A stretch of DNA of 64,000 nucleotides, taken from positions 62,001 to 126,000 of the forward strand of contig JACOUP010000002.1 of the NCBI GenBank assembly GCA_016177765.1, given 5' to 3'. Made by a program: the position numbers and the translations under genes. Positions 10,467-59,287 of this stretch are shown here, one piece after another. Below the pieces are notes generated by a model that was given only the letters and a program-made list of their open reading frames with translations, was not told where the DNA came from and did not search any database. Numbering within the stretch: the stretch's first letter is position 1; every line of letters starts with the position of its first letter. The stretch is from Deltaproteobacteria bacterium. Lineage in GTDB: Bacteria > UBA10199 > JACPAL01 > JACOUP01.

Positions 10467-10494
10467 GGGTGAACCACCCTTGGGTGACTCACCC
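10467..10494. repeat. 15-bp palindromic unit array, 2 units
   Basis: Units GGGTG-AAC-CACCC (10467-10479) and GGGTG-ACT-CACCC (10482-10494) are joined by TT and lie 15 bp apart. They occupy the gap between the ATPase gene and the TPR gene. See the dispersed-repeat finding. Confidence 0.8.
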
Positions 10495-10532
10495 TTGACA
10501 AACCCCCCTTCGATCCCCCATGAAGAGGGGCG

Positions 10533-11393
10533 ATGAAAAAGGCCCTGCCCGTTCTCATTTTCCTTCTTGTTGCCTCTATTCAATTAGAGGCCGCTGAATC
10601 CCGGCCGGCCTCCGGGGAAATCTCCACCCCCCCGCCGGAAGAGGCGATCCAGAAGATCCGTGAGGGGTATCAGAAACATGATTATCGAAAGGTTTCACGG
10701 TATTGCAAGGATTTGCCAAGTGGGAGGATTCCCTTTTATATCCAGATGATCTGTGCCGAGTCCCATGCGGCGGCGGGAGAGACGGAGGCGGCGATTCGCC
10801 TGTTGCAATCCCTCTTGAGGGAGGACCCGCCAGGTCTGGACCGCCTCAAGGCCCAGTACGACCTGGCCAACCTCTATTTCATGCAGGGGCGTTACGCCGA
10901 ATCGCGAAAGGTCTTTGAGCAGGTTTTAGAAACGGCGACCGAGAGAGAGGAATGGGTCCGGAAGGCCCGCCAGAAGATTGTCCAGTTGCGGCAGAAGGAG
11001 GGGAAGTCGAAAGACCAAATTACCCTTCAACTCCTGGAGGTGGAAGAGAGGATTGAAAAGGGGATTGATCTGTATGCCACAAAAGGGGTTTTGAAGGAGA
11101 TCCTCTCCCGGACGGAGCGGCGGCAACCCCAACAAAATGAACAGGCCAAAGAATTATTGGAACGATTGAAGGATAAAGAGAGCAGTCTGGTCACAAGCGA
11201 ACTGGCCAATGTCCACCGGTTGTATCGTGAGGAAAAGAAGCTCGCTCAAGCGCGGGAGCTCCTGCAAAAACTGCTTTTGGCCCATCCGGATATGGAAGAA
11301 CGGCCCCATGTGGAGGCACTTCTTGAAGAGGTGGAGCATGAAGAGGAAGCGGACCAGCTCGATTTGGCAAAAAAAGGCAAGAAAAGACGTTAG
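10533..11393 (+). CDS. Periplasmic TPR-repeat protein
   Basis: A signal peptide (MKKALPVLIFLLVASIQLEA) precedes a 265-residue helical protein. At least two tetratricopeptide-like repeats are visible (AAGETEAAIRLLQSLLREDP and LANLYFMQGRYAESRKVFEQ), followed by Gln/Glu/Arg-rich helices and a Lys-rich end (KKGKKRR). TPR proteins are scaffolds for protein complexes; its partner is unknown. It sits alone between the repeat array and the convergent receiver gene, whose stop is 2 bp away. Confidence 0.8.
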   Translation: MKKALPVLIFLLVASIQLEAAESRPASGEISTPPPEEAIQKIREGYQKHDYRKVSRYCKDLPSGRIPFYIQMICAESHAAAGETEAAIRLLQSLLREDPPGLDRLKAQYDLANLYFMQGRYAESRKVFEQVLETATEREEWVRKARQKIVQLRQKEGKSKDQITLQLLEVEERIEKGIDLYATKGVLKEILSRTERRQPQQNEQAKELLERLKDKESSLVTSELANVHRLYREEKKLAQARELLQKLLLAHPDMEERPHVEALLEEVEHEEEADQLDLAKKGKKRR

Positions 11394-11395
11394 TC

Positions 11396-14449
<3,054 letters not shown>

Positions 14450-14570: not shown

Positions 14571-14581
14571 TCGCGCCCGCT

Positions 14582-19662: not shown

Positions 19663-20063
19663 CATCGTCACGAGCGCTTCGACTCCTTTGGTTTTTCGGC
19701 ATGGCATTGTGCCTGGTTGCGGGTTGTTCCGTTTCCCCCTCCGAAGAAACGGCTCGTCGCTTTGTGGATGTCTACTACCTCCAAATTGATCTCGAAGAGG
19801 CCCAAGGGGTCACGGAGGGCCTTGCCCGTGAAAAGATAGAGGGGGAGATCCGGCTCAAGACAGGGCAGACGATTGCGGCGGATACCCGAAAACCAAAGAT
19901 GAGTTATAAAAAGGCCGGGCACCAGATGGATGGGGAAGGGGAGGTCTATTTTTTTGAGTTGCGTATCCAACCAAAGGATTTCCCGGAGATTCAAAGAAAA
20001 TTACGGATCGTTGTGAGAAAGGGAGAAAAATCGTGGAAGGTCACACAATTCTCGGAGGGGTGA
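19659..20063 (+). CDS. Small lipoprotein
   Basis: From ATG 19659 (overlapping the previous stop as ATGA) the 134-residue product has a lipoprotein signal: basic MTSSRALR, a hydrophobic core, and lipobox LVAGC at about residues 20-24. The mature part is one small alpha/beta domain (ARRFVDVYYLQIDLEEA, VYFFELRIQPKDF, LRIVVRKGEKSWKVTQF) resembling DUF4878/NTF2-like accessory lipoproteins. Its stop codon TGA is contributed by the first 15-bp repeat unit (GGGTGA at 20058-20063). Confidence 0.8.
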   Translation: MTSSRALRLLWFFGMALCLVAGCSVSPSEETARRFVDVYYLQIDLEEAQGVTEGLAREKIEGEIRLKTGQTIAADTRKPKMSYKKAGHQMDGEGEVYFFELRIQPKDFPEIQRKLRIVVRKGEKSWKVTQFSEG

Positions 20064-20941
20064 TTCACCCGAGGGTGAGTCACCCCAGGGTGGTTCACCC
20101 TGGGGCCGTCCGCCGCTCCAATTTTTATCTCTCCCTCTTTTTTCTTCCGCCGCGGAAACGAAAGGCGATGACCGCCATTTATTCCTTTGCACGGCTTGTG
20201 GATGATATCGTTGACGAAGAGGGAGAGAGGGAAGAAAAAGAACGCGAACTCCAGTTCTGGAGAGAGGAGATCAAAAGGTGCCTGGAGGGGGCCGCCCAAA
20301 CACCGCTGGGACGGGAACTCTCCCTTGTCATTCAGGGTCACCAGCTTTCAGAAGTCTATTTTCAGGAGCTGATCAATGGGGTGGCGATGGACCTCTCCCG
20401 GGACCGTTATGCCACCTTCGAGGAACTTTGCGGTTACTGCTACGGTGTTGCTGGCACCGTTGGATCGATTTGTATGGAGCTCTTTGGGCTGAGGCATGAA
20501 CGGGCCATGGAGTATGCTAAGACCCTGGGGCGGGCCTTTCAATTGACGAATATTCTACGGGACATTATTGCCGATCTGGAACAAAATCGGGTTTATCTGC
20601 CGCAGGAGGATTTGAGGCGATTCGGTGTGACGGAAGAGGATCTCCGAGGTCATCGCGATAGCGATGCCTTTCGGACCCTGATCGGTTTTGAGGTTCAAAG
20701 GGCCTTCGCCTGTTTTCAACAGGTCCAGGGGCTCCTGACGCCGGAAGAAAAAAGAAAAATTGTCGCCGCCGACGTGATGGGGGCGGTTTATTCCAGGATC
20801 TTGCGGGAGATTGCCAAATCCCCTTCCCGTATTTTCAGGGAAAAAGTTTCTCTGGACCCGGTTACCAAACTTTCACTCGCCCTGCAAACCTGGTTTAAGA
20901 ACCAGTTTACGCAAAAGGGAAGGGGACCAGAAGAGAAATAG
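20033..20941 (+). CDS. hpnD: Squalene/phytoene synthase family enzyme, HpnD-like
   Basis: This family condenses two farnesyl (or geranylgeranyl) diphosphates; HpnD makes presqualene diphosphate. Both Asp-rich motifs are intact: RLVDDIVDEEGER near residue 58 and LTNILRDIIADLEQNRVYLP near 177, with YCYGVAGTVG between. The likely start is GTG 20033 with GGGAG seven bases upstream, overlapping the lipoprotein gene by 31 bp. The N-terminus then contains VIHPRVSHPRVVHPG from three 15-bp units; without it the length before RRSNFYLSL is what HpnD proteins usually have. GTG codons inside each unit (20060, 20075, 20090) are alternative starts. HpnD versus phytoene synthase cannot be settled by eye. Its 3' end overlaps the next gene by 69 bp. 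Confidence 0.75.
   Translation: MEGHTILGGVIHPRVSHPRVVHPGAVRRSNFYLSLFFLPPRKRKAMTAIYSFARLVDDIVDEEGEREEKERELQFWREEIKRCLEGAAQTPLGRELSLVIQGHQLSEVYFQELINGVAMDLSRDRYATFEELCGYCYGVAGTVGSICMELFGLRHERAMEYAKTLGRAFQLTNILRDIIADLEQNRVYLPQEDLRRFGVTEEDLRGHRDSDAFRTLIGFEVQRAFACFQQVQGLLTPEEKRKIVAADVMGAVYSRILREIAKSPSRIFREKVSLDPVTKLSLALQTWFKNQFTQKGRGPEEK
20058..20100. repeat. 15-bp unit array, 3 units, at a gene junction
   Basis: GGGTG-ATT-CACCC (20058), GGGTG-AGT-CACCC (20073) and GGGTG-GTT-CACCC (20088), exactly 15 bp apart. The first supplies the TGA stop of the upstream lipoprotein; all three are read as VxHP(R/G) in the squalene-synthase frame. Confidence 0.85.
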
Positions 20942-21885: not shown

Positions 21886-22461
21886 ATGCCCAAGATTTAC
21901 ACTAAAACCGGGGATCAGGGAGAGACGGGGCTCTTTGGCGGTCGGCGTGTTTCCAAGGATCATCCCCGCATTGAGGCCTACGGCACGGTTGATGAGCTCA
22001 ACAGTTTTATCGGACTGGTCCGGGACTTCGATCCTCGCCTGGAAACGGTGCAAAATCATCTCTTTGACCTGGGTGCCTCTCTGGCCGCGCCGGCCGATCA
22101 AAAGACAAAGGGTGCTTCACCCAAGGGTGATTCACCCAAGGCGGAAAAAAAGGCGGCTCCTGTGGGAGGGACGGAGATCTGTTTTTTGGAGGGCTGGATC
22201 GATGAAGTTGAGGGGAAACTCTCCCCGCTAAAAAATTTCATCCTTCCGGGAGGGACCGTGACGGCGGTTCGCTTTCATCTGGCACGGTCGGTTTGCCGCC
22301 GGGCGGAGAGACGGGTGATTTCCCTTAAAGAGAAGGAAGGTGTTTTGCCGGAAATTATCGTCTATTTGAACCGGTTGTCCGACCTGTTGTTTGTCCTGGC
22401 CCGGGAGGCCAACCGAAGAGAAGAGGTGGCCGATATTCCCTGGACCAAAAGAGGAGTTTGA
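21886..22461 (+). CDS. PduO-type cob(I)alamin adenosyltransferase
   Basis: Transfers adenosyl from ATP to cob(I)alamin to make coenzyme B12. Visible are the N-terminal ATP-binding YTKTGDQGETGLFGGRRVSK, AYGTVDELNSFIGL, and the C-terminal RSVCRRAERRVISL and YLNRLSDLLFVLAR blocks of the PduO/Cob_adeno_trans family. Length 191. A loop after NHLFDLGASLAAP carries KGASPKGDSPKA from two 15-bp units plus a Lys-rich run, where most homologues have only a short linker, so the insertion appears tolerated. It ends just before greA. Confidence 0.92.
   Translation: MPKIYTKTGDQGETGLFGGRRVSKDHPRIEAYGTVDELNSFIGLVRDFDPRLETVQNHLFDLGASLAAPADQKTKGASPKGDSPKAEKKAAPVGGTEICFLEGWIDEVEGKLSPLKNFILPGGTVTAVRFHLARSVCRRAERRVISLKEKEGVLPEIIVYLNRLSDLLFVLAREANRREEVADIPWTKRGV
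22110..22137. repeat. 15-bp unit array, 2 units, in frame in pduO
   Basis: GGGTG-CTT-CACCC (22110-22122) and GGGTG-ATT-CACCC (22125-22137), read as KGASPKGDSPK in the adenosyltransferase. Confidence 0.85.
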
Positions 22462-22947: not shown

Positions 22948-23662
22948 AAAACCAAAGGGTGCTTCACCCAAGGGTGTGCCACCCAAGGGTGTGCCACCCA
23001 AGGGTGTGCCACCCAAGGCAATCCTCTTTGATTTTGACGGTGTCCTGGTCGATAACGAACCGATCCACCTCAAAATGTTCCAAAAAGTCCTGGCTGAAGA
23101 AGGCGTCCGGCTGACCCGGCAGGATTATTACACGAAATATCTGGGGATGGACGACAAAGGTTGCTTTTCGGCTGTTCTGAAAGCGGCGGGCCGGCCGACA
23201 TCCGTTGCTTATCTTCATCTGCTGACCCGGAGGAAGACCCGTTGCTATAAGGAGTTTGTCGCGAAACACCTCAAATTCTTGCCGGGGGTCAAAGAATTTA
23301 TCCAGGAGGCTTCAAAGAATTCTTGTTTGGGGATTGTCTCCGGGGCCCTTCGCGAAGAGATTTTGCTGATCCTTGGCCTCGGGGGGCTGAAAAAATATTT
23401 TTCAGTGATTGTCAGCGCAGAAGATGTCAAAAATGGCAAACCGAACCCGGAAGGGTACCTGCTGGGATTAAAAAAACTCTCTGCCTTTCACAAAGAAAAG
23501 ATTTTCCCCCGTGAAACGTTGGTCGTGGAAGACTCCCTATGGGGGATCGAAGCGGCCCACCGCGCCGGGATAAAATGCCTCGCTGTCACCACCTCGTACC
23601 CGGCCAGCCAACTCAAAAAAGCGGATTGGGTCGTCAAGGAACTTTCCCAATTTTTAATTTAA
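22940..23662 (+). CDS. HAD-superfamily phosphatase (beta-phosphoglucomutase-like) with repeat-encoded N-terminus
   Basis: A 240-residue HAD subfamily IA hydrolase: nucleophile motif ILFDFDGVLVDNEPIHLKMF, cap domain, motif II GIVSGAL, Lys in VKNGKPNPEGYLLGL, and motif IV LVVEDSLWGIEAAHRAG. It resembles phosphoglycolate phosphatases and beta-phosphoglucomutases; the substrate is unknown. ATG 22940 overlaps the greA stop (ATGGATAA). Between the start and the first strand lie four 15-bp units encoding KGASPKGVPPKGVPPKGVPPK, so the extra residues lie directly in front of the DFDG strand. Apart from this head the protein has normal length. The 3' end overlaps the convergent hydrolase gene by 9 bp. 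Confidence 0.9.
   Translation: MDKKPKGASPKGVPPKGVPPKGVPPKAILFDFDGVLVDNEPIHLKMFQKVLAEEGVRLTRQDYYTKYLGMDDKGCFSAVLKAAGRPTSVAYLHLLTRRKTRCYKEFVAKHLKFLPGVKEFIQEASKNSCLGIVSGALREEILLILGLGGLKKYFSVIVSAEDVKNGKPNPEGYLLGLKKLSAFHKEKIFPRETLVVEDSLWGIEAAHRAGIKCLAVTTSYPASQLKKADWVVKELSQFLI
22957..23014. repeat. 15-bp unit array, 4 units, longest in the window
   Basis: GGGTG-CTT-CACCC at 22957, then GGGTG-TGC-CACCC at 22972, 22987 and 23002, all with AA linkers. The last three units are identical, which points to recent tandem expansion. Confidence 0.9.
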
Positions 23663-24430: not shown

Positions 24431-26398
24431 ATGGCTGTCGCCTACAACGAGCTAGAGAAGATGCAACAAGAAGCGTTGCGGGGTGATTCACCCAGGGGTG
24501 AACTCCACTCCCGACCCCTGGAAACAGGGCTGACCCCCCGTAAATACCTTGAACTGGTCTTGAGCCGAACCGCCAAGGTGGCGTGGTATCTGACCCAGTT
24601 TGTTAACACCTTAATCGGCGAGGGTCTGTCTTTTCAGGCCAAGTGGATGCCGGCACCGGCTGTGAAGAGCCGGGAAAAGACATTTCCCCAACTCGGATGG
24701 CCGCGAAAGACCGACTCGCTCTGTCCCAAGTGTGTTAAGGAGGTGCGGGAGGCGATCATTGCCGGGCATCAGGACTATACGGCCCTGATCCACTCGAAGC
24801 CGGGCGAGATCAAGGCGGCCATTGTTGAGAAGGATGGGAAGATCCTGATGGTCAAGGATTGTCCCAAGCATGGCCACTTTGAAGATGTCATGTCGATCGA
24901 TCCGGAATTCCTGGCAAGGATTGAAAAACTCTACCCAGGGCGGGATTTTAAATCGCCGAAGACAAACCTGCGCAATCATGGGAGCTCCTCGATCCAATAC
25001 GGGAGAGGGGCTGTTCTGACCGTTGACCTCACCAATCGGTGCAACATGATGTGTGACCCCTGCTTTATGGATGCCAATCAGGTCGGTTATGTCCACGAGC
25101 TCTCCTGGGAAGAAGTGCAACAGATTCTGGATAATTCCCTGCAGATCAAACCTCGGCGCCAGATGAGCGTTCAGTTCTCCGGCGGCGAGCCGACCCTTTC
25201 CCCCTACTTTCTGGATGCGATCCGGTATGCCAAACAGATCGGCTATTTTTCAGTGCAGGCGGCGACCAATGGGATCCGCTTTGCCGAGGATCCTGATTTT
25301 GCCAAAGCGGCCTATGAGGCCGGGATGCGCATCGCCTATCTCCAATTCGACGGCGTTGGCAACCTGAGCAATCAGCATCGCAAGATTTCGAACCTCTTTG
25401 ATGTCAAGCTGAGGGCTATCAACAATCTGGCAGCCGCAGGGATTGATGTCGTCCTCGTGATCACACTGGTCAATACGGTGAATAATGACCAGGTGGGGCC
25501 GATCATTGATTTCGCTATCCAGAATTCGGATAAAATCACCTTCTGTTCCTTTCAGCCGGTTTCCTTCACCGGACGTGATGAAGATGTGGATGATGAGACA
25601 AGAACAAAACAGCGCTATACCCTCTCCCATCTGGCCCATGATGTGAAGAAGCAGACCGGTATTTCAGAACCTTTGAGGGACTGGCTTCCCCTTTCAGCGA
25701 TCGGTCCCTTTTCGGACGTTGCCGATCTGATGAGAGGGCCGGAGAAGGAATGGGGGAGTCTCAAGTGTGGTTGTCATCCCAATTGCGGCATCGGGATGGG
25801 GCTTTTGGTCAACAAGAAGACCAAGGAGTGGTTGCCCCTTTCCCAATTCATGGATCTCCCCCAATTGATCAAGGATTTCGAGAAAATCCATGACAACGCC
25901 CGTGGCAGCTTCTGGACAAAGACCCAAGTGGCGATGTCGATCCTCCGGAACTACGATCCGATCAAATCACCCAAAAAACTGACCCTGAAAGATCTTCTCA
26001 AGAAGATTGACAAGCAGAGCGGCGGCACGGTCGGCGGCGGCGATTATGGTGTCGGGGCGGAGAGAAAGAAAGACACCTGGCTCTTCATGTTCATCGCGGG
26101 GATGTGGTTTCAGGATCTCTTCAACTATGACTTCCGCCGGACGGAGATGTGCATTATTCCGTATGCCACCCAGCTGGGGGAGGTTTCCTTCTGTGCCTAT
26201 AATACCGGTGTCGGCTGGAGGAACATTATTGAAAACATGTTCAAGAACGCATCAGTCGCCCAGTGGTACAAGGAAAAGGGGCGGCATACAGTCTACGCCG
26301 GCAACCGGCCAATGTCGATTCCCTCCTGGGAGCATGATGTCTGGGTTCCCGAGGATGCGGATACCAACATCAAAAAACTTCCGGTGTATCCTCACTAG
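24431..26398 (+). CDS. Large radical SAM enzyme, tetraether/membrane-spanning lipid synthase-like
   Basis: The 655-residue protein has an N-terminal Cys domain (LCPKCVKEV near residue 97 and MVKDCPKHGHFEDV near 140), a central radical SAM barrel with NRCNMMCDPCF (CX3CX2C, near 204) and SVQFSGGEPTLSPY, and further Cys clusters in LKCGCHPNCGIGMG (about 445) and RTEMCIIPYATQ with VSFCAYN near the end. This arrangement, CPxC / CPxHG, CX3CX2C, CxCHPxC, is what I know from Tes, the archaeal enzyme that joins lipid tails into tetraethers, and from bacterial homologues linked to membrane-spanning lipids. The neighbouring convergent gene is a phospholipid head-group transferase, which agrees. AAAGGAG precedes the ATG. 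One 15-bp repeat unit plus a decayed second one lies near the N-terminus (LRGDSPRGELHS). Confidence 0.78.
   Translation: MAVAYNELEKMQQEALRGDSPRGELHSRPLETGLTPRKYLELVLSRTAKVAWYLTQFVNTLIGEGLSFQAKWMPAPAVKSREKTFPQLGWPRKTDSLCPKCVKEVREAIIAGHQDYTALIHSKPGEIKAAIVEKDGKILMVKDCPKHGHFEDVMSIDPEFLARIEKLYPGRDFKSPKTNLRNHGSSSIQYGRGAVLTVDLTNRCNMMCDPCFMDANQVGYVHELSWEEVQQILDNSLQIKPRRQMSVQFSGGEPTLSPYFLDAIRYAKQIGYFSVQAATNGIRFAEDPDFAKAAYEAGMRIAYLQFDGVGNLSNQHRKISNLFDVKLRAINNLAAAGIDVVLVITLVNTVNNDQVGPIIDFAIQNSDKITFCSFQPVSFTGRDEDVDDETRTKQRYTLSHLAHDVKKQTGISEPLRDWLPLSAIGPFSDVADLMRGPEKEWGSLKCGCHPNCGIGMGLLVNKKTKEWLPLSQFMDLPQLIKDFEKIHDNARGSFWTKTQVAMSILRNYDPIKSPKKLTLKDLLKKIDKQSGGTVGGGDYGVGAERKKDTWLFMFIAGMWFQDLFNYDFRRTEMCIIPYATQLGEVSFCAYNTGVGWRNIIENMFKNASVAQWYKEKGRHTVYAGNRPMSIPSWEHDVWVPEDADTNIKKLPVYPH
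24481..24493. repeat. 15-bp unit in the radical SAM gene
   Basis: GGGTG-ATT-CACCC followed 2 bp later by a partial GGGTGAACTCC, probably a decayed second unit; in frame. Confidence 0.75.
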
Positions 26399-34224: not shown

Positions 34225-34237
34225 GGGTGGTTTACCC
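34225..34237. repeat. 15-bp unit at the rluD ribosome-binding site
   Basis: GGGTG-GTT-TACCC, one mismatch from the unit, fills the 18-bp gap between the HNH stop and the rluD ATG, exactly where the Shine-Dalgarno should be. Confidence 0.6.
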
Positions 34238-35141: not shown

Positions 35142-35812
35142 TGATTCATTCGAAAATTTTGAACAATATTCCTGGGATCCAACACGGTTTTGGGACGCGG
35201 TTTGATGCCGCTCCTCCCAACACCCATCTCTTGCAACAGGTTCATGGCAAAAAGGTTGTTGTGATCAGGAGGGGAGATGAAGCGCCCGTTATTGAATCTA
35301 AGGGTGATTCACCCAAAGCGGATGCCTGGGTCACGAACGACCCCTCTCTCATCATAGGAATCAAGACGGCCGATTGCGTTCCGATTCTTCTCTATGACCC
35401 GGTCCAGAAGGGTGTGGCCGCCGTTCATGCCGGGTGGAAGGGGAGTTTGGCGAACATCTCCGGTGAGGTCGTAAAAATAATGCAGGAGGAATTTTACTCC
35501 AAACCCTCAGACCTTGTGGCGGCGATCGGTCCGGCGGTTGGCTTTCACTGTTATGAAGTCGGTTCTGATGTTGCCGATCATTTTAAGAAGGAATTTGGCG
35601 AAGACAGACAAGTTTTACAGAAGTTTGGGAGGAAATTCCTCTTGGATACCCAAGCCGTGAATCGGAGACAACTCCATGAGGCGGGACTCCTGCCTGAAAA
35701 AATTGAAATTCTTTCCTATTGCACCCATTGTCGCTCGGATCTCCTGCACTCCGTCCGCCGCGATGGCGACGAAGCCGGCCGGCAGGTAAGTTGGGTTGAA
35801 TTGTTGGGTTAA
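35141..35812 (+). CDS. YfiH/PgeF family purine-nucleoside / cell-wall editing enzyme
   Basis: The 223-residue protein belongs to the YfiH (DUF152, laccase-domain) family: zinc-site ADCVPILLYDPVQKGVAAVH followed by AGWKG, GFHCYEVG, and SYCTHCRSDLLHS. Members edit peptidoglycan precursors (PgeF) or act on purine nucleosides (LACC1-like). An in-frame 15-bp unit adds SKGDSPKADAW in a loop after the first strands. Translation is coupled to rluD, a common neighbour of this family. Confidence 0.9.
   Translation: MIHSKILNNIPGIQHGFGTRFDAAPPNTHLLQQVHGKKVVVIRRGDEAPVIESKGDSPKADAWVTNDPSLIIGIKTADCVPILLYDPVQKGVAAVHAGWKGSLANISGEVVKIMQEEFYSKPSDLVAAIGPAVGFHCYEVGSDVADHFKKEFGEDRQVLQKFGRKFLLDTQAVNRRQLHEAGLLPEKIEILSYCTHCRSDLLHSVRRDGDEAGRQVSWVELLG
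35302..35314. repeat. 15-bp unit in frame in yfiH
   Basis: A single perfect GGGTG-ATT-CACCC, read as KGDSPK. Confidence 0.8.
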
Positions 35813-36518: not shown

Positions 36519-36529
36519 CGTTGTAAGTA

Positions 36530-41666: not shown

Positions 41667-42818
41667 ATGGGACGTGGAATAAAAAAGATCGGCATTGTCA
41701 CGGAATATTTCTACCCGCATCTGGGGGGGATTACCGAGCATGTTTACTATTTCTCCAAGGAACTGGCCAGGAGGGGATTTGAGGTCGTTCTCCTGACAGG
41801 ATTCAAGGGAGAAGAGCTCGAGGTCGAACTTCCGCCGTCGGTGAGGATTATCCGTTTGGGAAAGAGCATTTCCATTTTTTCAAATAACTCTTATGGCAGG
41901 GTGACCATCGGCACCAATCTGGGGAGAAAAATCAAAAAGGTTTTAGCCGATGAGCAGTTTGATCTCCTTCATATTCATTCGCCGATCATGATGACACTCC
42001 CCCTCCTTTTCCAGAAATATACCAATACGGTGACTATCGGCACTTTTCATACCTATTTTGACACCCTTTTCCCCTATAAAATTTGGCGGAAGACGTCTCA
42101 GCGTTATCTTGACAAACTGGACGGTCGGATTGCCGTTTCGCAATCTTGCATCGATGCAATGAATCGATATTTCCGGGGAGACTATACGATCATTCCCAAC
42201 GGGGTCGAGACCTCCTGGTTTTCCACCCCTTCAGGCCGGATCCAAAAATATGACGATGGGTCGCAAAATATCCTGTTTCTCGGGCGGCTTGATCCCCGTA
42301 ACGGCCTCAATATATTGTTGGATGCTTTTCCGCATATTGAACGGAAACTTCCGAATGCCAGACTCATCGTTGTCGGAGACGGGCCGATGCGGCATTTCTT
42401 TGAGAAAAGGGCCGGCACCTTGATCAACCGCAAGATATTTTTTGAGGGGCAGATCAATGGAAATCGTCCCGACTATTTTGCCACCAGTCACGTCTTTTGT
42501 TACCCGGCCACCAAGGCCTCTTTCGGCATCACCCTCCTTGAGGCGATGGCCGCCGGAACGCCGGTTGTCGCGGCCGATAATCCCGGTTTTAAGGGGCTCA
42601 TCCGGCATGGGGTCAACGGGTTTCTTGTCCCCAAGGACAACCCTCCCATCCTTGCCGAGGCCCTGGTCAAAATTTTGGACGAAAAGGGCCTCGCCCAGAA
42701 GTTGGTTGAGGGGGGACGGGCGGAGGCGGAAAGACATTCTTGGGCCAAGGTGACGGATAGGGTCATCGAGTTCTACAACCAGATTTATTTGCAAAAGAAG
42801 GGAGTTCCGTTTGGGTGA
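41667..42818 (+). CDS. GT4 glycosyltransferase (PimA-like)
   Basis: The 383-residue GT-B enzyme has an N-terminal GIVTEYFYPHLGGITEHV acceptor loop, HIHSPIMMTLPLL, GTFHTYF, and a C-terminal donor domain with FLGRLDPRNGLNILLDAF, VVGDGP and SFGITLLEAMAAGTPVVAAD (EX7E). The pattern resembles phosphatidylinositol mannosyltransferases acting on membrane lipids. ATG 41667 starts directly before the first strand. Its stop TGA lies in a 15-bp repeat unit. First gene of an envelope operon with the deacetylase and MMPL genes. Confidence 0.88.
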   Translation: MGRGIKKIGIVTEYFYPHLGGITEHVYYFSKELARRGFEVVLLTGFKGEELEVELPPSVRIIRLGKSISIFSNNSYGRVTIGTNLGRKIKKVLADEQFDLLHIHSPIMMTLPLLFQKYTNTVTIGTFHTYFDTLFPYKIWRKTSQRYLDKLDGRIAVSQSCIDAMNRYFRGDYTIIPNGVETSWFSTPSGRIQKYDDGSQNILFLGRLDPRNGLNILLDAFPHIERKLPNARLIVVGDGPMRHFFEKRAGTLINRKIFFEGQINGNRPDYFATSHVFCYPATKASFGITLLEAMAAGTPVVAADNPGFKGLIRHGVNGFLVPKDNPPILAEALVKILDEKGLAQKLVEGGRAEAERHSWAKVTDRVIEFYNQIYLQKKGVPFG

Positions 42819-43653
42819 ACTACCCTTGCCGTTCAGGGTTTACGTCGAGGTCTTCCTTATCGTTCTGGGTGGTGTCGGGCTTGGTTTTCTCCTTCTCATC
42901 CGTTTCTTGCGCTCCTTTAAATCAGGCCAACCGATTCGGATCCTCAGGAGGGGGCTGGTTTTTTTATTTTATGGGATTATGGCCTTCTTGGCCTGTTCTG
43001 CTTTTATTCCTTGTTTTAATCCCTGGGGAGAAACTCTCTGTCACGGCCCCCGTTCCGAGAAACTGGTGGCTTTAACCTTTGATGACGGGCCGAACGAACC
43101 GTACACCTCTCAAATTCTGGATATCCTTAAAGGGTACGACGTCCCCGCGGCATTTTTTGTGGTTGGTAAAAATGTGGAGCGATACCCTGGAGTGGTGGAG
43201 AGGATGAACCGTGAAGGCTTCCTGGTAGGGAACCATACCTGGGATCATCGTCCTCTTGTCTGGATGAGGTCTGACGAGGCCGAAAAAGAAATCCTGGGAT
43301 GGGAAAGAGCGATGAATGGTCTTGGAACACCTCCCGCAAAACTTTTTAGGGCTCCCCATGGTTGGAAGAGTCCGTGGCTGGTTTCTTTGTTAAAGGGGAG
43401 GGGGTATCGTTTCATCGGGTGGAGTCGGGGTGTCTGGGACAGTGATCAGCCAGGGGTTGATATTTTGTTCAACCGGTTGACGAAAGAAATGACAAATGGA
43501 GAGATTATTCTTCTTCATGACGGGGCCGAGGCTCGCGCGGGGGTGGATCGGAGCCAAACGGTTACCATTCTTCCCGCCGTCATTGAATCGTACCGAAAGA
43601 ACGGGTTTCAATTTGTTTCCCTGGAGGAATTTTTGAAACGAGCCCCTCGATGA
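42811..43653 (+). CDS. Membrane-anchored polysaccharide deacetylase (NodB family)
   Basis: The 280-residue protein has two N-terminal TM helices followed by a NodB domain: VALTFDDGPNEPYTSQILD (metal Asp), VGNHTWDHRPL (His pair), LFRAPHGWKSPW, and IILLHDGA. Such enzymes N-deacetylate amino sugars of polysaccharides or glycolipids. TTG 42811 is a likely start, inside the repeat unit and overlapping the glycosyltransferase by 8 bp; the next gene overlaps by 4 bp. The active site is probably periplasmic. Confidence 0.87.
   Translation: MGELPLPFRVYVEVFLIVLGGVGLGFLLLIRFLRSFKSGQPIRILRRGLVFLFYGIMAFLACSAFIPCFNPWGETLCHGPRSEKLVALTFDDGPNEPYTSQILDILKGYDVPAAFFVVGKNVERYPGVVERMNREGFLVGNHTWDHRPLVWMRSDEAEKEILGWERAMNGLGTPPAKLFRAPHGWKSPWLVSLLKGRGYRFIGWSRGVWDSDQPGVDILFNRLTKEMTNGEIILLHDGAEARAGVDRSQTVTILPAVIESYRKNGFQFVSLEEFLKRAPR
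42813..42825. repeat. 15-bp unit at the glycosyltransferase/deacetylase junction
   Basis: GGGTG-AAC-TACCC, one mismatch from the unit. Its GGGTGA provides the stop of the upstream gene. Confidence 0.6.
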
Positions 43654-48142: not shown

Positions 48143-48200
48143 GGGTGGTTCACCCAAGGGTGCTTCACCCAGAGGTATGTGAGGTCTGGGTGAAGCACCC
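48143..48200. repeat. Three 15-bp units, two forming a 16-bp hairpin
   Basis: GGGTG-GTT-CACCC (48143), GGGTG-CTT-CACCC (48158) and, inverted, GGGTG-AAG-CACCC (48188). GGGTGCTTCACCCAGA (48158-48173) is exactly complementary to 48185-48200, with an 11-nt loop. Located just after the minus-strand lipoprotein gene, it would make a strong RNA hairpin and may serve as a terminator or processing site, although no U-run is seen. Confidence 0.8.
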
Positions 48201-48204: not shown

Positions 48205-49422
48205 TTAGTAGGCCGGGATGACGAAATTATTGCCGGCATTGTCGATTAGGTCCGTATCATTACCTTCAAAAAACAGCTTGTCTTCAAAAGAGTTATCCAG
48301 AGCAGGACTGATCGTGAAAGGGAAGGGATTCTCTCCCCAGGCCAGGCTTGATTCAAGGCCAGTGCAATTTGTCTGGTCCACGGGAGTAGGGATCTCTGAA
48401 TTGTCTGTACGCTGGGTGCAGAAGGTTGCCGGGATGTTGCTCAATTCCTGTCTGTTGGAATTAATCTTGAGCAGGGAGTAGCCGTTTTGGTAGTCCCCTC
48501 GTCCTAACACCTTGGTGACGGCAGGTGATGCGGAGGCGTCGCTGTCAAATTTAGTCACAGTAAAATCGCCGACACCACCAATGGCAGTGCCGGAACTATC
48601 CATGGTGACACGGCCTGTGAGGCGGCTGCGGCTTTTAAAAATGATGTCATCACCGGTTCCAAAATTCTCGTCTAAGCCGCTATAGGAAGAACCGTGGGCA
48701 AAATTGAGATCGAGGGAACCAATGGTATTCTCACCTTCCTTCACTTCCGCATAGGTGGCAACTCTGACAATACGGATGCGGACCAGACTGCCGCGCGTCT
48801 CCGCTTGTTCCGTATTGGCACTTGTTGTGTCGGACATATTGGCGATTCTGACAACACCGCTGTTATCTTTCCCGTAGATTGTTGTCTCCTGACTGTTGGG
48901 TACTTCACCCAAGGGTGAATCACCCTTTGTTGTGATGACACAGTCAAAATAACGATTGTCTGCGGTGCCGTTGTCGATTGTTCCATAGAAAGCGATCGGG
49001 ATTAAATCTCCCGCCGTCAGCGGGGAGGCCCCTGTGCAATCAACATTCTTGTCTTTGGAAAAGACTTCCTCCAGCTTCCCCCTCAAATGACCGAGAAGAA
49101 CCCGAATCTTGGTGACGACACGGGGGTATTGATTGGGGTCCCCGAAGATATCGGTCAAGACATAAACATTATCTGTGTTGGTATAGGTGGTCCAGTCATC
49201 GCTGGTACCGGTGGTCAGGGCGGAAAGTCCCGAAGAAGCACTCCCCGAACTATTGATATTCGGGAGGAGCGCCGAACCTGCAGTTTCGACCCTTAACGCC
49301 ACTGTTGAGGCATCAATGTTGTTGGCTGTGGTGTTCGTCTCCTCTTCAGAGGTGGGGTTGCTACTGCAGTGCGCCAGTGAAAGCCCCAACACGAGGGTGA
49401 TGAGTATTCTGCTGGTTTTCAT
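48205..49422 (-). CDS. Outer-membrane lipoprotein, unknown family
   Basis: From the internal ATG near 49422 the product (about 405 residues) has a lipoprotein signal MKTSRILITLVLGLSLAHC with Cys at residue 19, a Thr/Ser/Asn-rich linker, and a long beta-rich, acidic domain (IPIAFYGTIDNGTADNRYFD, SRLTGRVTMDSSGTAIGGVG) ending FVIPAY. An excellent Shine-Dalgarno (GGGAGGAG) precedes this ATG. The frame continues upstream without a stop to 49635; ATG 49575 there also has a perfect ribosome-binding site (see the leader entry). Two 15-bp units are read in frame (TTKGDSPLGEVPNS). Function unknown. Confidence 0.8.
   Translation of the reverse strand: MKTSRILITLVLGLSLAHCSSNPTSEEETNTTANNIDASTVALRVETAGSALLPNINSSGSASSGLSALTTGTSDDWTTYTNTDNVYVLTDIFGDPNQYPRVVTKIRVLLGHLRGKLEEVFSKDKNVDCTGASPLTAGDLIPIAFYGTIDNGTADNRYFDCVITTKGDSPLGEVPNSQETTIYGKDNSGVVRIANMSDTTSANTEQAETRGSLVRIRIVRVATYAEVKEGENTIGSLDLNFAHGSSYSGLDENFGTGDDIIFKSRSRLTGRVTMDSSGTAIGGVGDFTVTKFDSDASASPAVTKVLGRGDYQNGYSLLKINSNRQELSNIPATFCTQRTDNSEIPTPVDQTNCTGLESSLAWGENPFPFTISPALDNSFEDKLFFEGNDTDLIDNAGNNFVIPAY
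48898..48925. repeat. 15-bp unit array, 2 units, in the lipoprotein gene
   Basis: GGGTA-CTT-CACCC (48898) and GGGTG-AAT-CACCC (48913), 15 bp apart. Read on the minus strand as KGDSPLGEVP, the same frame choice (KGxSP) as in pduO. Confidence 0.8.
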
Positions 49423-54576: not shown

Positions 54577-55682
54577 GGCGATGGCTGTTTTTGGTCTTCC
54601 TTTGGGTGAATCACCTTGTTTACGGCTGTGGGACCCCGGACATGACCCTCCGTTCACTTTCTTCGGACCAGCCGTATGTTTTGCAGGCAACCCCGATGCA
54701 GGAAGAGATCCCGCCGGATACCCTTTTTCATCTTTCCTTTTCACGCCCCCTGGATCTGGCGAGCATTGATGAGAAGGCGGTTTTGGTTGTTGAAGGGCAG
54801 TTCTCGTTTGAGCCGTACAAGAGTATGTCCAAGATGATCCAGGAGATTGAGGAGGGGAAGATTGCCTCTCATCCGGTCTTGAGACAGCTCTCTGAAGAGA
54901 AATCAAAACTGGCGATTCAACCCAGGATCCCGCTCCAACCGGGGGCATGGTATTCCCTGGTGGTGACTTCCAGACTCATGACGGAGGATCAGTTTTCTTT
55001 TAATCAAACCCCGGCCGATTCAGCCACCCCGTTTGTCAAGTATTACTATGTCCTGGAAGAGGGGGCCTCCCCGAAAGGCTCTGGGGGAAAGGCCCCGGCG
55101 GGAAACCTCACCGGTTCCTCCTCGACCTCATCAAAATCCTCCCCCGACCGTCCCCCCCCTCAAGTCACACTGAACGAAATCTATTATGATGCCGTCGGGA
55201 GCGATACCGATGGGGTCTTGTTTGTGGAGTTGAAGGGGAAGGAAGGGGAAGATCTCTCCGACCTTCAGGTTCTTTTTGTGAATGGGGATGATGGCAAGAT
55301 TAGTGACAGTTTTGTCCTGCCGAGCGGGTCGGTTATCAAAGAAGGGGGTCTTTTTGTGATTGCCGACAGTTCTACCGGGAGTTCTACTTCCAGCCGCGTG
55401 ACGACTTATGACTTTCTGGATAATTTTGATCCCCAGAACGGTCCCGATGCGGTTCAGCTCGTTTTTAATGGAGAGATCCTGGATGCCTTGGCCTATGGTC
55501 CCGTGACAGTCACAACGGCTGAAAACGGCCTGTCCCTCGTTGAAGGGAGTCCAGCCGTTCCGGTCCCTTCCGGCCACAGCCTTTCCAGGACTGAGGGGGC
55601 GGCCGATACGAATGACAATTCGGTCGATTTTGTGGAAAATACGATCCCTTCTCCGGGTACCAGTGCTGTGACGAGAAAGTAG
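54573..55682 (+). CDS. Surface lipoprotein with Ig-like (SbsA) and lamin-tail domains
   Basis: The 369-residue product has a lipoprotein-like signal (RRWLFLVFLWVNHLVYGC), an N-terminal Big_5/SbsA Ig-like domain (EIPPDTLFHLSFSRPLDLAS, LQPGAWYSLVV), a Ser/Gly/Pro linker, and a C-terminal lamin-tail domain (VTLNEIYYDAVGSDTDGVLF, LDNFDPQNGPDAVQLVFNGE). Such secreted LTD proteins are surface or nuclease-associated. A near-copy of the 15-bp unit (GGGTG-AAT-CACCT at 54604) lies in the signal peptide. Confidence 0.82.
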   Translation: MRRWLFLVFLWVNHLVYGCGTPDMTLRSLSSDQPYVLQATPMQEEIPPDTLFHLSFSRPLDLASIDEKAVLVVEGQFSFEPYKSMSKMIQEIEEGKIASHPVLRQLSEEKSKLAIQPRIPLQPGAWYSLVVTSRLMTEDQFSFNQTPADSATPFVKYYYVLEEGASPKGSGGKAPAGNLTGSSSTSSKSSPDRPPPQVTLNEIYYDAVGSDTDGVLFVELKGKEGEDLSDLQVLFVNGDDGKISDSFVLPSGSVIKEGGLFVIADSSTGSSTSSRVTTYDFLDNFDPQNGPDAVQLVFNGEILDALAYGPVTVTTAENGLSLVEGSPAVPVPSGHSLSRTEGAADTNDNSVDFVENTIPSPGTSAVTRK

Positions 55683-56570: not shown

Positions 56571-57112
56571 GACCCGTAACGGGGGCGGAGATTATTTTCA
56601 ACCCCCATATGGTCTAAGACTCTGGCAACGACGGTATCAACCGCCTCTTCGAGGGTTTTAGGCTTGCTGTAGAAGGAGGGGATTGCCGGGATGATAATCG
56701 CCCCGGCCAGGGCCAGGAGACGGATGTTTTCAATATGGATCAGGCTCCAAGGGGTTTCCCTCGGGACTAAAATTATTTTTCGGTGTTCCTTAAAAAAAAC
56801 ATCAGCTGTTCTGGAGAGCAGATCATCCGAAAAACCGTGGGCGATTCGGCCGATCATCCCCATGCTGGAGGGGATAACGACCAGTTGGTCATATTTTGCG
56901 GAGCCGCTGGCAAACGGGGCGGTAAAGTCGCGCGGGCCAAAGATAGGACGGTCATAACGGTTGTAACTGATCCCCAATTCCTCCTCAGCGATCTTGTGGG
57001 CATTTTCGGAGATGACCAGTGAGACTTCATGCGAGGTGGTGGCGAGACCTTCAAGCAGACGCTTCGGGTAGATTGCCCCGCTCGCGCCACTGATGCCGAC
57101 GACAATCTTCAC
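56567..57112 (-). CDS. ubiX: Flavin prenyltransferase UbiX (MqnM role)
   Basis: UbiX makes prenylated FMN, the cofactor of UbiD decarboxylases. The 181-residue protein shows VGISGASGAIYPKRLLEGL, LVISENAHKIAEEELG, VVIPSSMGMIGRIAHGFSDD and ILVPRETPWSLIHIENI. Overlaps of 4 bp on both sides place it tightly in the menaquinone operon. The ubiD homologue two genes upstream is its expected client. Confidence 0.95.
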   Translation of the reverse strand: MKIVVGISGASGAIYPKRLLEGLATTSHEVSLVISENAHKIAEEELGISYNRYDRPIFGPRDFTAPFASGSAKYDQLVVIPSSMGMIGRIAHGFSDDLLSRTADVFFKEHRKIILVPRETPWSLIHIENIRLLALAGAIIIPAIPSFYSKPKTLEEAVDTVVARVLDHMGVENNLRPRYGS

Positions 57113-57801
57113 GAAGCCCTCTCTGCCGTAATCAGTGTGGAGACGCCGCCGCTTTGAAGGGTGATATCGACCTTGATGAACCCTTGAGTGTGCAACAATC
57201 CCCGATACTCAGTGGAGGTGTAGAACTCCTTGACGGAATCATGGAGGTATTTGTAGGCGTTTTTATGCCGTGAAACGAGTCGGCCTATGATCGGGATCAG
57301 GGTGTGACCATAGGTGGCATGAAAGAGACGGCTGACCCATCGGTCCGGCCTGAAAAATTCGAGGATGACGAGCCTCCCACCCGGTTTGATCACACGGTAA
57401 AGTTCGGCCAACGCCTTTGGATTATCGTCGATGTTTCTCATCCCGTAGGCGCACATCGCCCCATCGAAGCTTCGATCCTTGAAAGGGAGGGCGAGACCAT
57501 CCCCACAAAACGGGCGGATCTGATTCTGACAACGAAAGGGGATCCGTTTTTTCCCCTCATTGAGCATTTCTTCGGAAAAATCGACGGCATCGATCTGAAC
57601 CGTGTCATTCTTTCTGCAGAGTTCGAGCGACATTGAAAGGGTCCCGGCACAGAGGTCCAGCACGCGGGCAAATTGCGGTGAGGTCAGAGGACTGACCGCC
57701 TGACGGCGCCACTGTCGATCGACCGAAAATGAAAGAAGACTGTTCAAGAGGTCATATTTCGGGGCGATGCGGCTGAAGAGTTCTCTCACTTCGGTGGACA
57801 T
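57109..57801 (-). CDS. menG: Demethylmenaquinone methyltransferase (UbiE/MenG)
   Basis: Class I SAM-dependent methyltransferase for the last step of menaquinone synthesis. From ATG 57801 it is 230 residues: FSRIAPKYDLLNSLLSFSVD, SAM site VLDLCAGTLSMSLELCRK, GDGLALPFKDRSFDGAMCAY, GMRNIDDNPKALAELYRVIK and PGGRLVILEF. The usual glycine-rich LDLAxGTG has S in place of the last G, a small change. The start is 1 bp after the ubiD stop, with GGGGAT upstream. Confidence 0.93.
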   Translation of the reverse strand: MSTEVRELFSRIAPKYDLLNSLLSFSVDRQWRRQAVSPLTSPQFARVLDLCAGTLSMSLELCRKNDTVQIDAVDFSEEMLNEGKKRIPFRCQNQIRPFCGDGLALPFKDRSFDGAMCAYGMRNIDDNPKALAELYRVIKPGGRLVILEFFRPDRWVSRLFHATYGHTLIPIIGRLVSRHKNAYKYLHDSVKEFYTSTEYRGLLHTQGFIKVDITLQSGGVSTLITAERAS

Positions 57802-57802
57802 T

Positions 57803-59287
57803 TTATTTGATCCCCAATTTTGTCCAGAGGGCATCGATCTTTGTTTTGACCTCCGGACTCATCTGGATGACGTCAGGCCATTCACGGCATCCCGGCTCGT
57901 CTTTCCATTTTCGGGTCCCGTCGATCCCTATTTTGGAACCGACTCCAAATGTGGGAGAGGCATGGTCGAGCGCATCGGTCGCCCCCTCGGAAAATAGAAA
58001 ATCTCTTTTGGGGTCTAGATTGGCGGTAAGGTGCCAGGTGACCTCCTTCAAATTTTGGACATTGACATCGTGATCGACAACAACAACGCATTTGGTGAAC
58101 ATCAATTGTCCGGTTCCCCAAAGGGAATGCATGATCTTTCGGGCATGGCCGGGGTACCCCTTCTTGATCGAAACAATTGCCAGATTATGAAAGGCCCCTT
58201 CAATCGGGAGGTGCATATCAACAATCTCCGGAAAGGTTGTTCGTAGAAGCGGGAGAAAAATCCGTTCGGTCGCCTTGCCGAGATAGGCATCCTCCATCGG
58301 CGGCGGACCGACGATGGTCGAGGGGAAGATAGCCTCCTTGCGGTGGGTGATCGCCGTCACATGAAAGAGTGGGTAGTTATCGGTGAGTGAGTAGTAACCG
58401 GTATGGTCGCCAAACGGTCCCTCCTTCACCGGAGACTCTGTTGGGTCAACAAATCCTTCGATGACAAAATCGGCATCGGCCGGGACCTCAAGGTCGATCG
58501 TTTTACATTTGACCATCTCGAACCCTTTTTTCCTCAAAAAACCGGCAAAAAGAATCTCGTCCATCATGTCCGGCAGTGGGGCACTTCCGGCATAGGTCAG
58601 GACCGGGTCCCCTCCGAGAAATACCGCCACATCAATCTTCTTTTTGATCTCTTTGTATTTGTCGAAATGTCGGGAGCCGACCTTGTGGATCTGCCAGTGC
58701 ATGGCGGTTGTTTTTTCGTCAAAGATCTGAATCCGGTAGAGGCCGACGTTACGGATCCCTGTTTCCGGGTCTTTGGTGATCACATTCCCAAGGGTGATAT
58801 ATGGCCCACCATCCCCGGGCCAACACTTGGGGATCGGCAATCGGTAAAGATTGGGCGGGTCGATCACCACCTCCTGACAGGGGTGATTCACCCCAGCCCC
58901 GCGCGAAACAGATTTTGGGGTGAAAGAGGCGAGTTTCACCAGTTCCGGGAGCATTTTTAGTTTCTCCATGAAACCAGAAGGGGGTTTTGTCTTTAAAAGT
59001 TCTTCAATTTGTTTCGCGATCTCTTCCACGGACTCCACCCCCAGGGCCCAGGCCATCCGTTGTTCGCTTCCGTACATATTCATCAGGACCGGAAATTCCG
59101 ATTTTTTATCCTTCCCATCCGGGCCGCGGTGGATCACATTTTCAAAGAGGAGGGCAGGGCCACCCTTTTTGACGACACGGTCGGCGACCTCCGTTAATTC
59201 CAGTTCCGCCCTCAGAGGCTCACGGATTCGTAAAAGTTCGTTCTTGGACTCTAAAAATTGAACGAAATCCTTTAGTGAGTGGTACAT
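57803..59287 (-). CDS. mqnL: UbiD-family decarboxylase (MqnL role)
   Basis: Prenyl-FMN-dependent decarboxylase, 494 residues. Visible are LFENVIHRGPDG, a metal/prFMN region RNVGLYRIQIFDEKTTAMHW, FAGFLRKKGFEMVKCKTIDL, VIEGFVDPTESPVKEGPFGD, HTGYYS (E-R-E type centre nearby), and HLPIEGAFHNLAIVSIKKGY. In the futalosine pathway MqnL removes the carboxylate from the prenylated naphthoate. A 15-bp repeat unit is read in frame in SRGAGVNHPCQEVV, where most UbiD have only xGPCQEVV, indicating a short insertion. It overlaps mqnX by 16 bp. Confidence 0.92.
   Translation of the reverse strand: MYHSLKDFVQFLESKNELLRIREPLRAELELTEVADRVVKKGGPALLFENVIHRGPDGKDKKSEFPVLMNMYGSEQRMAWALGVESVEEIAKQIEELLKTKPPSGFMEKLKMLPELVKLASFTPKSVSRGAGVNHPCQEVVIDPPNLYRLPIPKCWPGDGGPYITLGNVITKDPETGIRNVGLYRIQIFDEKTTAMHWQIHKVGSRHFDKYKEIKKKIDVAVFLGGDPVLTYAGSAPLPDMMDEILFAGFLRKKGFEMVKCKTIDLEVPADADFVIEGFVDPTESPVKEGPFGDHTGYYSLTDNYPLFHVTAITHRKEAIFPSTIVGPPPMEDAYLGKATERIFLPLLRTTFPEIVDMHLPIEGAFHNLAIVSIKKGYPGHARKIMHSLWGTGQLMFTKCVVVVDHDVNVQNLKEVTWHLTANLDPKRDFLFSEGATDALDHASPTFGVGSKIGIDGTRKWKDEPGCREWPDVIQMSPEVKTKIDALWTKLGIK
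58881..58893. repeat. 15-bp unit in frame in mqnL (ubiD)
   Basis: A perfect GGGTG-ATT-CACCC, encoding GVNH just before the conserved PCQEVV on the minus strand. Confidence 0.75.

What the first reader, a model, noticed from the sequence alone, without database searches (positions are those of the whole stretch)
10467..58893. A dispersed 15-bp coding palindrome (GGGTG-NNN-CACCC + 2 nt) at about a dozen loci
Seen directly: units occur at 10467 (x2), 20058 (x3), 22110 (x2), 22957 (x4), 24481 (x1 plus a decayed one), 34225, 35302, 42813, 48143 (x3), 48898 (x2), 54604 (near-copy) and 58881. Tandem units are always 15 bp apart, so no insertion can shift a frame. The arms are constant and the central triplet varies freely (ATT, CTT, TGC, AGT, GTT, ACT, AAC, AAT). 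In genes they are read as K-G-x-(S/P)-P or V-x-H-P-R. Only two of three frames are open when the centre begins with A, because GGGTGA gives a stop. Rickettsia RPEs and cyanobacterial HIP/STRR repeats are the nearest concepts, but this unit is unlike those I know. A mechanism that copies and expands a frame-neutral palindrome across unrelated genes is implied.
Basis: partly seen in the sequence, partly recalled or inferred. Interest (0 to 1): 0.85.

Follow-up and report, generated by a model that had tools for sequence, protein, structure and literature searches.

The report
Fifteen-base hairpin inserting inside bacterial genes
In one little-known family of bacteria, a tiny 15-base palindromic DNA unit has been copied into hundreds of places, mostly inside genes, where a copy typically adds five amino acids without shifting the reading frame.

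Summary
The repeat is real: 18 exact GGGTGNNNCACCC in the window against 0.07 expected, and 340 in the 1.92-Mb genome against 3 for the reversed control. Of 46 genomes held for the phylum, only the two of this family are enriched (340, 79); the other 44 have 0-5 each, 58 in all against 103 for the control. The unit is a directional 15-mer, AAGGGTG-NTT-CACCC. In the 39% of the genome held, 126 of 154 units lie inside genes. They are insertions: of 24 gapped orthologue sites between the two family members, 17 gaps are multiples of five codons, including 10 residues in the window's pduO. Carriers in one or the other genome include ribosomal L18 and S2, EF-Ts, an Era-like GTPase, IspD and peptide deformylase. 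Empty sites carry an AAGG-like word in 16 of 24 cases, 6.7 expected, the word chosen after seeing them. The dyad is kept by paired arm changes. I read it as a non-autonomous mobile micro-palindrome that enters AAGG-like sites; the mover is unknown. It works like Rickettsia palindromic elements and intragenic REPs but meets neither definition.

The parts
10467..10494 (-). two tandem units, intergenic (12 bp after the gene ending 10454, 38 bp before the gene at 10533); NTT-like strand is minus
20058..20100 (+). three tandem units; the first overlaps the end of the gene call 19707-20063, the others are intergenic
22110..22137 (+). two tandem units in pduO (21886-22461), read KGASPKGDSPK; 10 residues absent in the G001 orthologue, and a gap in PDB homologues
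22957..23014 (+). four tandem units at the N-terminus of a HAD-type phosphatase (22940-23662), PKGASPKGVPPKGVPPKGVPPK; not seen in the G001 orthologue, whose called N-terminus differs
24481..24508 (+). one exact unit and a decayed neighbour (24496, 3 arm mismatches) near the N-terminus of a Tes-like radical SAM gene (24431-26398)
34225..34237 (+). one-mismatch copy (GGGTGGTTTACCC) between genes; chance not excluded
35302..35314 (+). one unit in pgeF/yfiH (35141-35812), ESKGDSPKAD; no net insertion against the best PDB homologues
42813..42825 (.). one-mismatch copy at a gene junction; chance not excluded
48143..48200 (+). intergenic: two tandem units and, 30 bp on, one inverted unit
48898..48925 (.). 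two units in register (one with one arm mismatch) inside the gene 48205-49575 on the minus strand, read KGDSPLGEVP
54604..54616 (.). near copy (one mismatch); chance not excluded
58881..58893 (+). one unit (NTT strand plus) in a UbiD-family gene on the minus strand (57803-59287), read AGVNHPCQ; the best PDB homologue has a 4-residue gap there and one residue less just before

Best explanation
It is a non-autonomous mobile micro-palindrome. The unit is 15 bp, AA-GGGTG-NTT-CACCC. SHOWN: units are present as insertions in one of two genera and absent in the other at most comparable sites; most gaps are exact multiples of 15 bp; the empty sites tend to carry an AAGG-like word; arrays are flanked by AA and, on the 3' side of the NTT strand, by G-rich sequence (AAGGG); the dyad is kept by paired changes of the two arms. 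INFERRED: a copy of TGNTTCACCCAAGGG goes in after a pre-existing (A)AGG(G), giving AAGGG-TGNTTCACCC-AAGGG. Each new junction CCCAAGGG is again a good target, so arrays grow by repeated insertion. The 13-base hairpin in single-stranded DNA is the recognised form, and copying happens in trans on DNA exposed at replication forks, by a factor present in this family (an HUH-type or other single-strand-acting nuclease is my first guess). Because 15 bp is five codons and two of three frames have no stop, copies inside genes add K-G-x-S-P (or V-x-H-P) and survive where a loop or end tolerates them.
For: Counts and family restriction. 126 of 154 units inside genes. 24 gapped orthologue sites, 17 of them exact multiples of 5 aa (about 5 expected if every length were alike, p = 1e-7), in genes identified by Pfam. 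Outgroups at the clean sites lack the inserts: GcvT has 10 aa in G000, 5 in G001, 0 in G002; an aldehyde dehydrogenase has 5 aa in G000, 0 in G004. Target: [AGC]AGG at 16 of 24 empty sites, 6.7 expected from random positions of the same genes, p = 8e-5; AAGG 9 of 24, 3.0 expected, p = 0.002. 3' flank +3..+5 is G in 67, 80 and 61 of 126 arrays, about 34 expected, and in 14, 14 and 11 of 23 intergenic/edge arrays. Two-base direct repeats flank 66 of 135 arrays, 28.9 expected; inverted 2, 29.0 expected. Paired arm change GGGCG/CGCCC 9 times against 3 and 1 of the single-sided forms. Dispersal is not local: neighbouring arrays share a centre in 14 of 33 pairs, 12.3 expected. Orientation follows replication: 36 of 50 clusters on contig C8 have the NTT unit on the leading strand, p = 0.003 against one half.
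Against: No mover identified. Three Y1 (HUH) transposase genes exist in G000 but none was found in G001 (82% complete), and G005 has ten without enrichment of the repeat. The [AGC]AGG word was chosen after seeing the sites. The leading-strand bias weakens to p = 0.015 when AAGGG supply is taken into account, and gene direction is partly confounded with it. With two genomes of the family, gain against loss is settled by outgroups at a few sites only, and no insertion was seen at strain level. 7 of 24 gaps are not multiples of five, and the RecG gap of 10 holds a single unit.
Confidence: 0.55

Rival explanations
1. No dedicated enzyme: replication template switching. A nascent strand ending in AAGGG slips onto a CCCTT of a unit elsewhere, copies 15 bases up to the next AAGGG while the hairpin folds, and returns to its own template.
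For: Explains the 15-bp quantum, the AAGGG on both sides, the AAGG-like word at empty sites, mixed centres within arrays and a strand bias.
Against: Template switching should favour near donors, but neighbouring arrays share centres no more than expected (14 of 33, 12.3 expected) and arrays are only weakly clustered (12 distances under 500 bp, 7.9 +/- 2.6 expected). It does not by itself explain restriction to one family or the paired arm changes.
Confidence: 0.22
2. A site kept by selection for a DNA-binding protein (chromosome organisation or regulation), in the way of HIP1, KOPS or uptake signals (recalled), spread by selection rather than by mobility.
For: Perfect dyad with few decayed copies (AA-flanked NTT units: 55 exact, 11 with one mismatch, 10 with two), genome-wide spread, leading-strand bias.
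Against: Such sites arise by point mutation; here they come as 15-bp insertions, and only 2 of 29 comparable rows are shared between the two genera.
Confidence: 0.08
3. Typical REP element moved by a RAYT (Y1 tyrosine transposase).
For: Short hairpin, high copy number, three Y1 genes in G000; GTAG REPs with 5-bp stems and intragenic REPs are known (PMC3733652, passages and section 15 read).
Against: No GTAG or CGTC tag; no exact unit lies in the 3.3-kb loci of two of the three Y1 genes, though one sister form GGGCG...CGCCC does; no Y1 found in G001; ten Y1 in G005 without enrichment; most copies are intragenic.
Confidence: 0.08
4. A peptide linker KGDSP selected at the protein level.
For: 101 of 126 coding units lie in the K/L-G-x-S-P frame; some synonymous variants, e.g. 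GGGTG/CCCCC five times. If the longer word AAGGG is taken as target, its frame supply (38% of sense cases start a codon) does not explain the bias.
Against: 22 of 154 units are intergenic and 25 of 126 coding ones are read in other frames; paired changes such as GAGCG/CGCTC alter the peptide but keep the dyad; with the word AAGG much of the frame bias follows its frame supply.
Confidence: 0.04

Closest known systems
Rickettsia palindromic elements (RPE)
   Same: Palindromic, dispersed, inserted in frame into unrelated genes (review PMC10969869, passages and section 13 read). Similar in-frame palindromic coding inserts of several codons are cited for Wolbachia and Methanocaldococcus jannaschii (PMC2996958, passage).
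   Different: RPEs are ~150 bp with 44 insertions first reported; here the unit is 15 bp, often tandem, present 340 times, with an AAGG-like target. R. conorii RPE sequences end in CGTC (PMC3733652, passage); this unit does not. I did not compare with RPE sequences themselves.
REP / GTAG and CGTC palindromic repeats, RAYT-mobilised
   Same: Short stem-loop (stems down to 5 bp), loops of 2-3 nt in many families, high copy number, some intragenic (PMC3733652).
   Different: No GTAG/CGTC tag; 82% intragenic in the sample instead of mostly intergenic; direct 15-bp tandems, whereas head-to-head dimers predominate in REPs.
Mitochondrial GC clusters / repetitive hairpin elements (yeast GC42, sponge RHE)
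   Same: Small palindromes spreading without a gene of their own; GC42 has a putative two-base (AG) target duplication (PMC4478555, abstract, introduction and section 17 read; PMC2800124, abstract and section 23 read).
   Different: Organellar; sponge ones in intergenic regions; GC42 is 42 bp; no codon quantum described in what I read.
PARCEL repeats
   Same: Palindromic coding repeats in tandem (PMC2996958, abstract and passages read).
   Different: 25-residue repeats in ORFs without assigned function, not five-codon inserts in housekeeping genes.

Membership tests
Rickettsia palindromic elements | element of about 150 bp | tested here: not met
   unit is 15 bp; longest array in the sample 4 units
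Rickettsia palindromic elements | in-frame insertion into unrelated protein-coding genes | tested here: met
Rickettsia palindromic elements | sequence of a known RPE family | not tested
   no RPE sequence was compared
REP (GTAG/CGTC) | non-paired GTAG or CGTC tag at one end | tested here: not met
   flanks are AA / AAGGG
REP (GTAG/CGTC) | mainly intergenic | tested here: not met
   126 of 154 units inside genes, 22 intergenic, 6 at edges
REP (GTAG/CGTC) | associated RAYT (Y1 transposase) flanked by the repeat | tested here: inconclusive
   3 Y1 in G000, 0 in G001 (82% complete); no exact unit in the loci of two of the three G000 genes, the third not looked at
MITE | terminal inverted repeats of a resident insertion sequence with target-site duplication | tested here: inconclusive
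   two-base direct flanks in 66 of 135 arrays, 61 of them AA or TT, so they may be part of the unit; no parent insertion sequence sought
Retro-element (RVT_1) | reverse transcriptase in the genome | tested here: not met
   no PF00078 match in G000 (96.5% complete) or G001 (82% complete)
Minisatellite expansion | copies made by tandem duplication only | tested here: not met
   108 separate clusters, 75 of them single exact units

The most novel reading that the evidence does not exclude
Possibly the smallest self-spreading DNA element of bacteria: a five-codon hairpin with its own target preference (AAGG-like), whose length and lack of stops make insertion into essential genes nearly harmless, moved by a still unnamed family-specific machine and steadily adding five-residue inserts to the proteome, ribosomal proteins included.
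Probability: 0.4. Interest if true: 0.9.

Novelty: new variant of a known kind. Interest (0 to 1): 0.75.

Why it matters
Palindromic elements inside genes are known, but those I read of are longer (REPs 20-40 bp and mostly intergenic, RPEs ~150 bp with 44 insertions first reported). Here hundreds of copies of a 15-bp unit sit mostly inside genes, several in widely conserved proteins, and the empty sites can be read off in a sister genus. This gives a direct count of how tolerant conserved proteins are to short insertions and a clean system for how gene-less palindromes move, which the papers on GC clusters and CGTC repeats leave open. The unit strings that I searched occur in no paper of the library held.

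Tried and rejected
Chance: rejected. Assembly or binning artefact: unlikely, since two different genome records carry it at mostly different sites. General bacterial motif: 14 contigs hold a tandem doublet; two (L019, L025) belong to the family member. Of the 12 others I counted the genomes of 10: 4-15 copies each, controls 0-25. Two of these stand well above their control (10 against 0, 12 against 3), but all were picked for having a doublet; I did not follow them. Phage carriage: no doublet in viral contigs. Reverse transcription: no RVT_1 in either carrier. RAYT: see rivals. Other palindromes of this build in the order: in 84-100 kb samples of four genomes no 5-3-5 palindrome came near the 34 that 104 kb of this genome shows; the highest was AGTTG, 7 in G005, not followed. 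Local spreading: not seen in 108 arrays over 699,038 bases. Frame bias as pure selection: with AAGG as target 63% of sense cases start a codon, with AAGGG only 38%, against 74 of 88 sense units, so part of the bias may be supply and I do not claim it as proof of selection. Ends of genes are preferred: 31 of 136 units within 20 codons of an end, against 11.9% of codons. I did not predict any structure and did not find the mobilising gene. Literature searches on palindromic in-frame repeats listed RPE, REP, MITE, PARCEL and organellar papers as the nearest, beside unrelated ones.
Full report
OBSERVATION. The pattern GGGTGNNNCACCC occurs 18 times in the window; 100 dinucleotide shuffles give a mean of 0.07. 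With up to one mismatch there are 22 against 2.6. The whole genome (G000, 1,921,761 bases in 19 contigs, 96.5% complete) holds 340 copies, the reversed pattern 3.

WHO HAS IT. The only other genome held of the family (G001, another genus, 1.4 Mb, 82% complete) holds 79, control 1. It has the same counts (79 and 1) as the record behind L019, JAUSKE01, titled Deltaproteobacteria bacterium isolate E14_metabat.bin.352, with a doublet at the same place in a contig of the same length. Of 46 genomes held for the phylum, the 44 others have 0-5 copies, 58 in all against 103 for the reversed control; six of the 44 exceed their own control, by at most four. The directional 15-mer AAGGGTGNTTCACCC occurs 172 and 39 times in the two carriers, twice in G049 and not in the other 43. 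In a collection of one genome for each of 84,980 species the doublet was found on 14 contigs, two of them of the family member; the genomes of 10 of the other 12 have 4-15 copies with controls of 0-25. I do not know the name of the window's organism.

ANATOMY. In 719,918 readable bases of G000 held here there are 154 exact units. They form 108 clusters (75 single, 21 double, 11 triple, 1 quadruple); 43 of 46 steps inside clusters are 15 bp. The arm spacing of 3 is specific: spacings 0-2 and 4-11 give 0-4 each. In tandems the sequence reads GGGTG-NNN-CACCC-AA-GGGTG. The centre is NTT on one strand in 105 of 154 for N = A, C or G. Sister forms keep the dyad: with NTT centres and purine flanks, GGGTG/CACCC 114, GGGCG/CGCCC 9, GAGCG/CGCTC 2, while single-sided GGGCG/CACCC occurs 3 times and GGGTG/CGCCC once; four other mixed forms make up 5 more (G000 and G001 stretches together). 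A composite form with an inner CACAC-AATG-GTGTG dyad recurs at four places.

WHERE IT SITS. With my own gene caller (757 genes in the first set, 90.6% coding in the G000 stretches), 126 of 154 units lie inside genes, 22 between genes, 6 at gene edges. In genes 101 of 126 are read xxG-GGT-GNN-NCA-CCC (mostly K or L-G-x-S/P/T/A-P), 15 as V-x-H-P, 10 in the frame where an A-centre would give a stop. Part of this bias may need no selection: sense AAGG words in these genes start a codon in 63% of cases, though sense AAGGG words only in 38%. Units are enriched near gene ends: 31 of 136 within 20 codons, against 11.9% of codons.

INSERTION. Reciprocal best matches between the G000 stretches and 570,057 bases of G001 gave 152 pairs of at least 45% identity, median 75%. 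Unit-bearing sites gave 24 gapped comparisons (gaps 5 aa x10, 10 x4, 15 x2, 20 x1; and 4 x3, 3, 6, 12, 14), 2 rows with a unit shared at the same place (GcvT and the N-terminus of the kinase-like gene L039_2-1234), 3 rows without gap or unit (two of them at the N-terminus of a radical SAM gene, LipA by my recall, where both genomes carry units at shifted places), and 20 units too near an end or beyond a partial orthologue. So 17 of 24 gaps are multiples of five; in 16 of these the length also equals five times the number of exact or degenerate units that I see in the alignment, while the RecG gap of 10 holds one unit, and the GcvT gap is an extra degenerate unit beside the shared one. Genes named by Pfam include ribosomal L18, S17, L3 and S2, EF-Ts, an Era-like GTPase, Rpe, peptide deformylase, GcvT, a CCA/poly(A) polymerase-like enzyme, Fmt, IspD, RecG and an EngA-like GTPase; in S17, Rpe, Fmt, RecG, EF-Ts and the EngA-like gene the exact unit is in G001 only, and in L3 and S2 it lies in a C-terminal tail. 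In the window, pduO has KTKGASPKGDSPKAEKK where G001 has KAKAEKK. Among outgroups of the order, GcvT shows 10 aa in G000, 5 in G001, 0 in G002, and an aldehyde dehydrogenase 5 aa in G000, 0 in G004; several more distant matches are too messy to read. PDB homologues have gaps at the units of PduO (13-16 residues), UbiD (4, and 1 just before), Lpd (about 6) and IspD (5); in PgeF no net insertion is visible. In IspD one unit lies just before the PKQF motif, which I recall to be close to the active site.

TARGET. Oriented by the centre, 126 of 134 arrays (8 could not be oriented or lacked flank) show A at -2/-1 (94, 92) and +1/+2 (97, 94), and G at +3..+5 (67, 80, 61; about 34 expected from composition); on the 5' side C at -3..-5 is only mildly raised (56, 49, 36). 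Among the 23 intergenic or edge arrays G is 14, 14 and 11, so this is not only codon choice. At the 24 gapped sites the empty orthologue carries [AGC]AGG within 9 bases of the junction in 16 cases; random places of the same genes give 6.7 (p = 8e-5); AAGG 9 against 3.0 (p = 0.002); CCAA-like words 5 against 2.1 (p = 0.06). I chose these words after seeing the sites, which makes the p-values optimistic.

MECHANISM. The shown parts are insertion, quantum, target word and dyad constraint. Arrays seem to form mostly by repeated arrival: adjacent exact units agree in their centre in 11 of 44 pairs, 6.2 +/- 2.1 expected. Arms of in-register neighbours are not always exact: besides exact ones, 15 had one mismatch and 7 had two. 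Neighbouring arrays share centres in 14 of 33 pairs, 12.3 expected, so donors are not local. On the 1.36-Mb contig C8, whose GC skew changes sign between the stretches starting at 710 and 775 kb, 36 of 50 unit clusters have the NTT strand on the leading strand (p = 0.003; p = 0.015 against AAGGG supply; clusters below 475 kb taken from the list, the rest from the stretches held). This fits single-stranded DNA at forks, but gene direction is partly mixed in: within leading-strand genes 26 sense, 11 antisense; within lagging-strand genes 6 sense, 5 antisense; intergenic 6 leading, 2 lagging. Neither carrier has an RVT_1 match. Y1 transposases do not follow the repeat. The mover is therefore unknown; I favour a trans-acting single-strand enzyme over pure template switching because of the lack of locality and the family restriction.

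COMPARISON. In behaviour it is nearest to Rickettsia palindromic elements (in-frame, unrelated genes; PMC10969869 section 13) and to intragenic REPs (PMC3733652, section 15). It fails defining features of both (size; GTAG/CGTC tag and intergenic habit). Yeast mitochondrial GC42 is near in being a small palindrome with a putative two-base target repeat (PMC4478555, section 17). Searches of the held library for the unit strings found nothing, and a search with the phylum name UBA10199 (my guess, not given by a tool) listed one paper on soil genomes that I did not read. Preprints and most subscription papers are not in that library.

LIMITS. Two genomes only; G001 is 82% complete and was sampled partly by unit content; gene calls are mine; gain against loss is polarised at few sites; no strain-level polymorphism; no mobilising gene.

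Noticed in passing
window 36507-36519 and other loci: A second dispersed palindrome, GGTGCCAGGCACC / GGTGCCTGGCACC, is over-represented (its 12-mer core 13 times in the sample, 0.08 expected); nine exact 13-mers were listed, one in the window.
   Followed up: partly
L039 10856-10987: Two GTAG-containing REP-like palindromes TGTAGGGGCG...CGCCCCTACA lie side by side; k-mers of this kind are over-represented in the sample.
   Followed up: partly
G000:C8:833546-833890, C8:481451-481789, C3:20333-20671: Three Y1 (IS200/RAYT-type) transposase matches, none found in the sister genome.
   Followed up: partly
window 24431-26398: Radical SAM protein matching the tetraether lipid synthase family Tes (E 1.5e-97, 327 bits, below its curated cut-off of 450); I recall this enzyme mainly from archaea. 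It also carries a unit.
   Followed up: no
window 27577-29472: Large OmpA-type protein with a match to the outer-membrane exchange protein TraB (186 bits, below its cut-off of 700).
   Followed up: no
L037 15016, L039 4298, L036 9651, L038 8229: A composite double unit GGGTGNGTCACACAATGGTGTGTCACCC recurs at four places, which suggests that two-unit blocks are also copied as one.
   Followed up: partly
G049:C16:7977 and C26:33037: Two exact AAGGGTGNTTCACCC in a genome of another family of the class; about 0.02 expected by a rough equal-base estimate. May be a trace of an older or transferred repeat.
   Followed up: no
records behind L020 and L024: Two unrelated genomes reached through the doublet scan have GGGTGNNNCACCC above their control (10 against 0, all with centre CGA or TCG; 12 against 3).
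   Followed up: no
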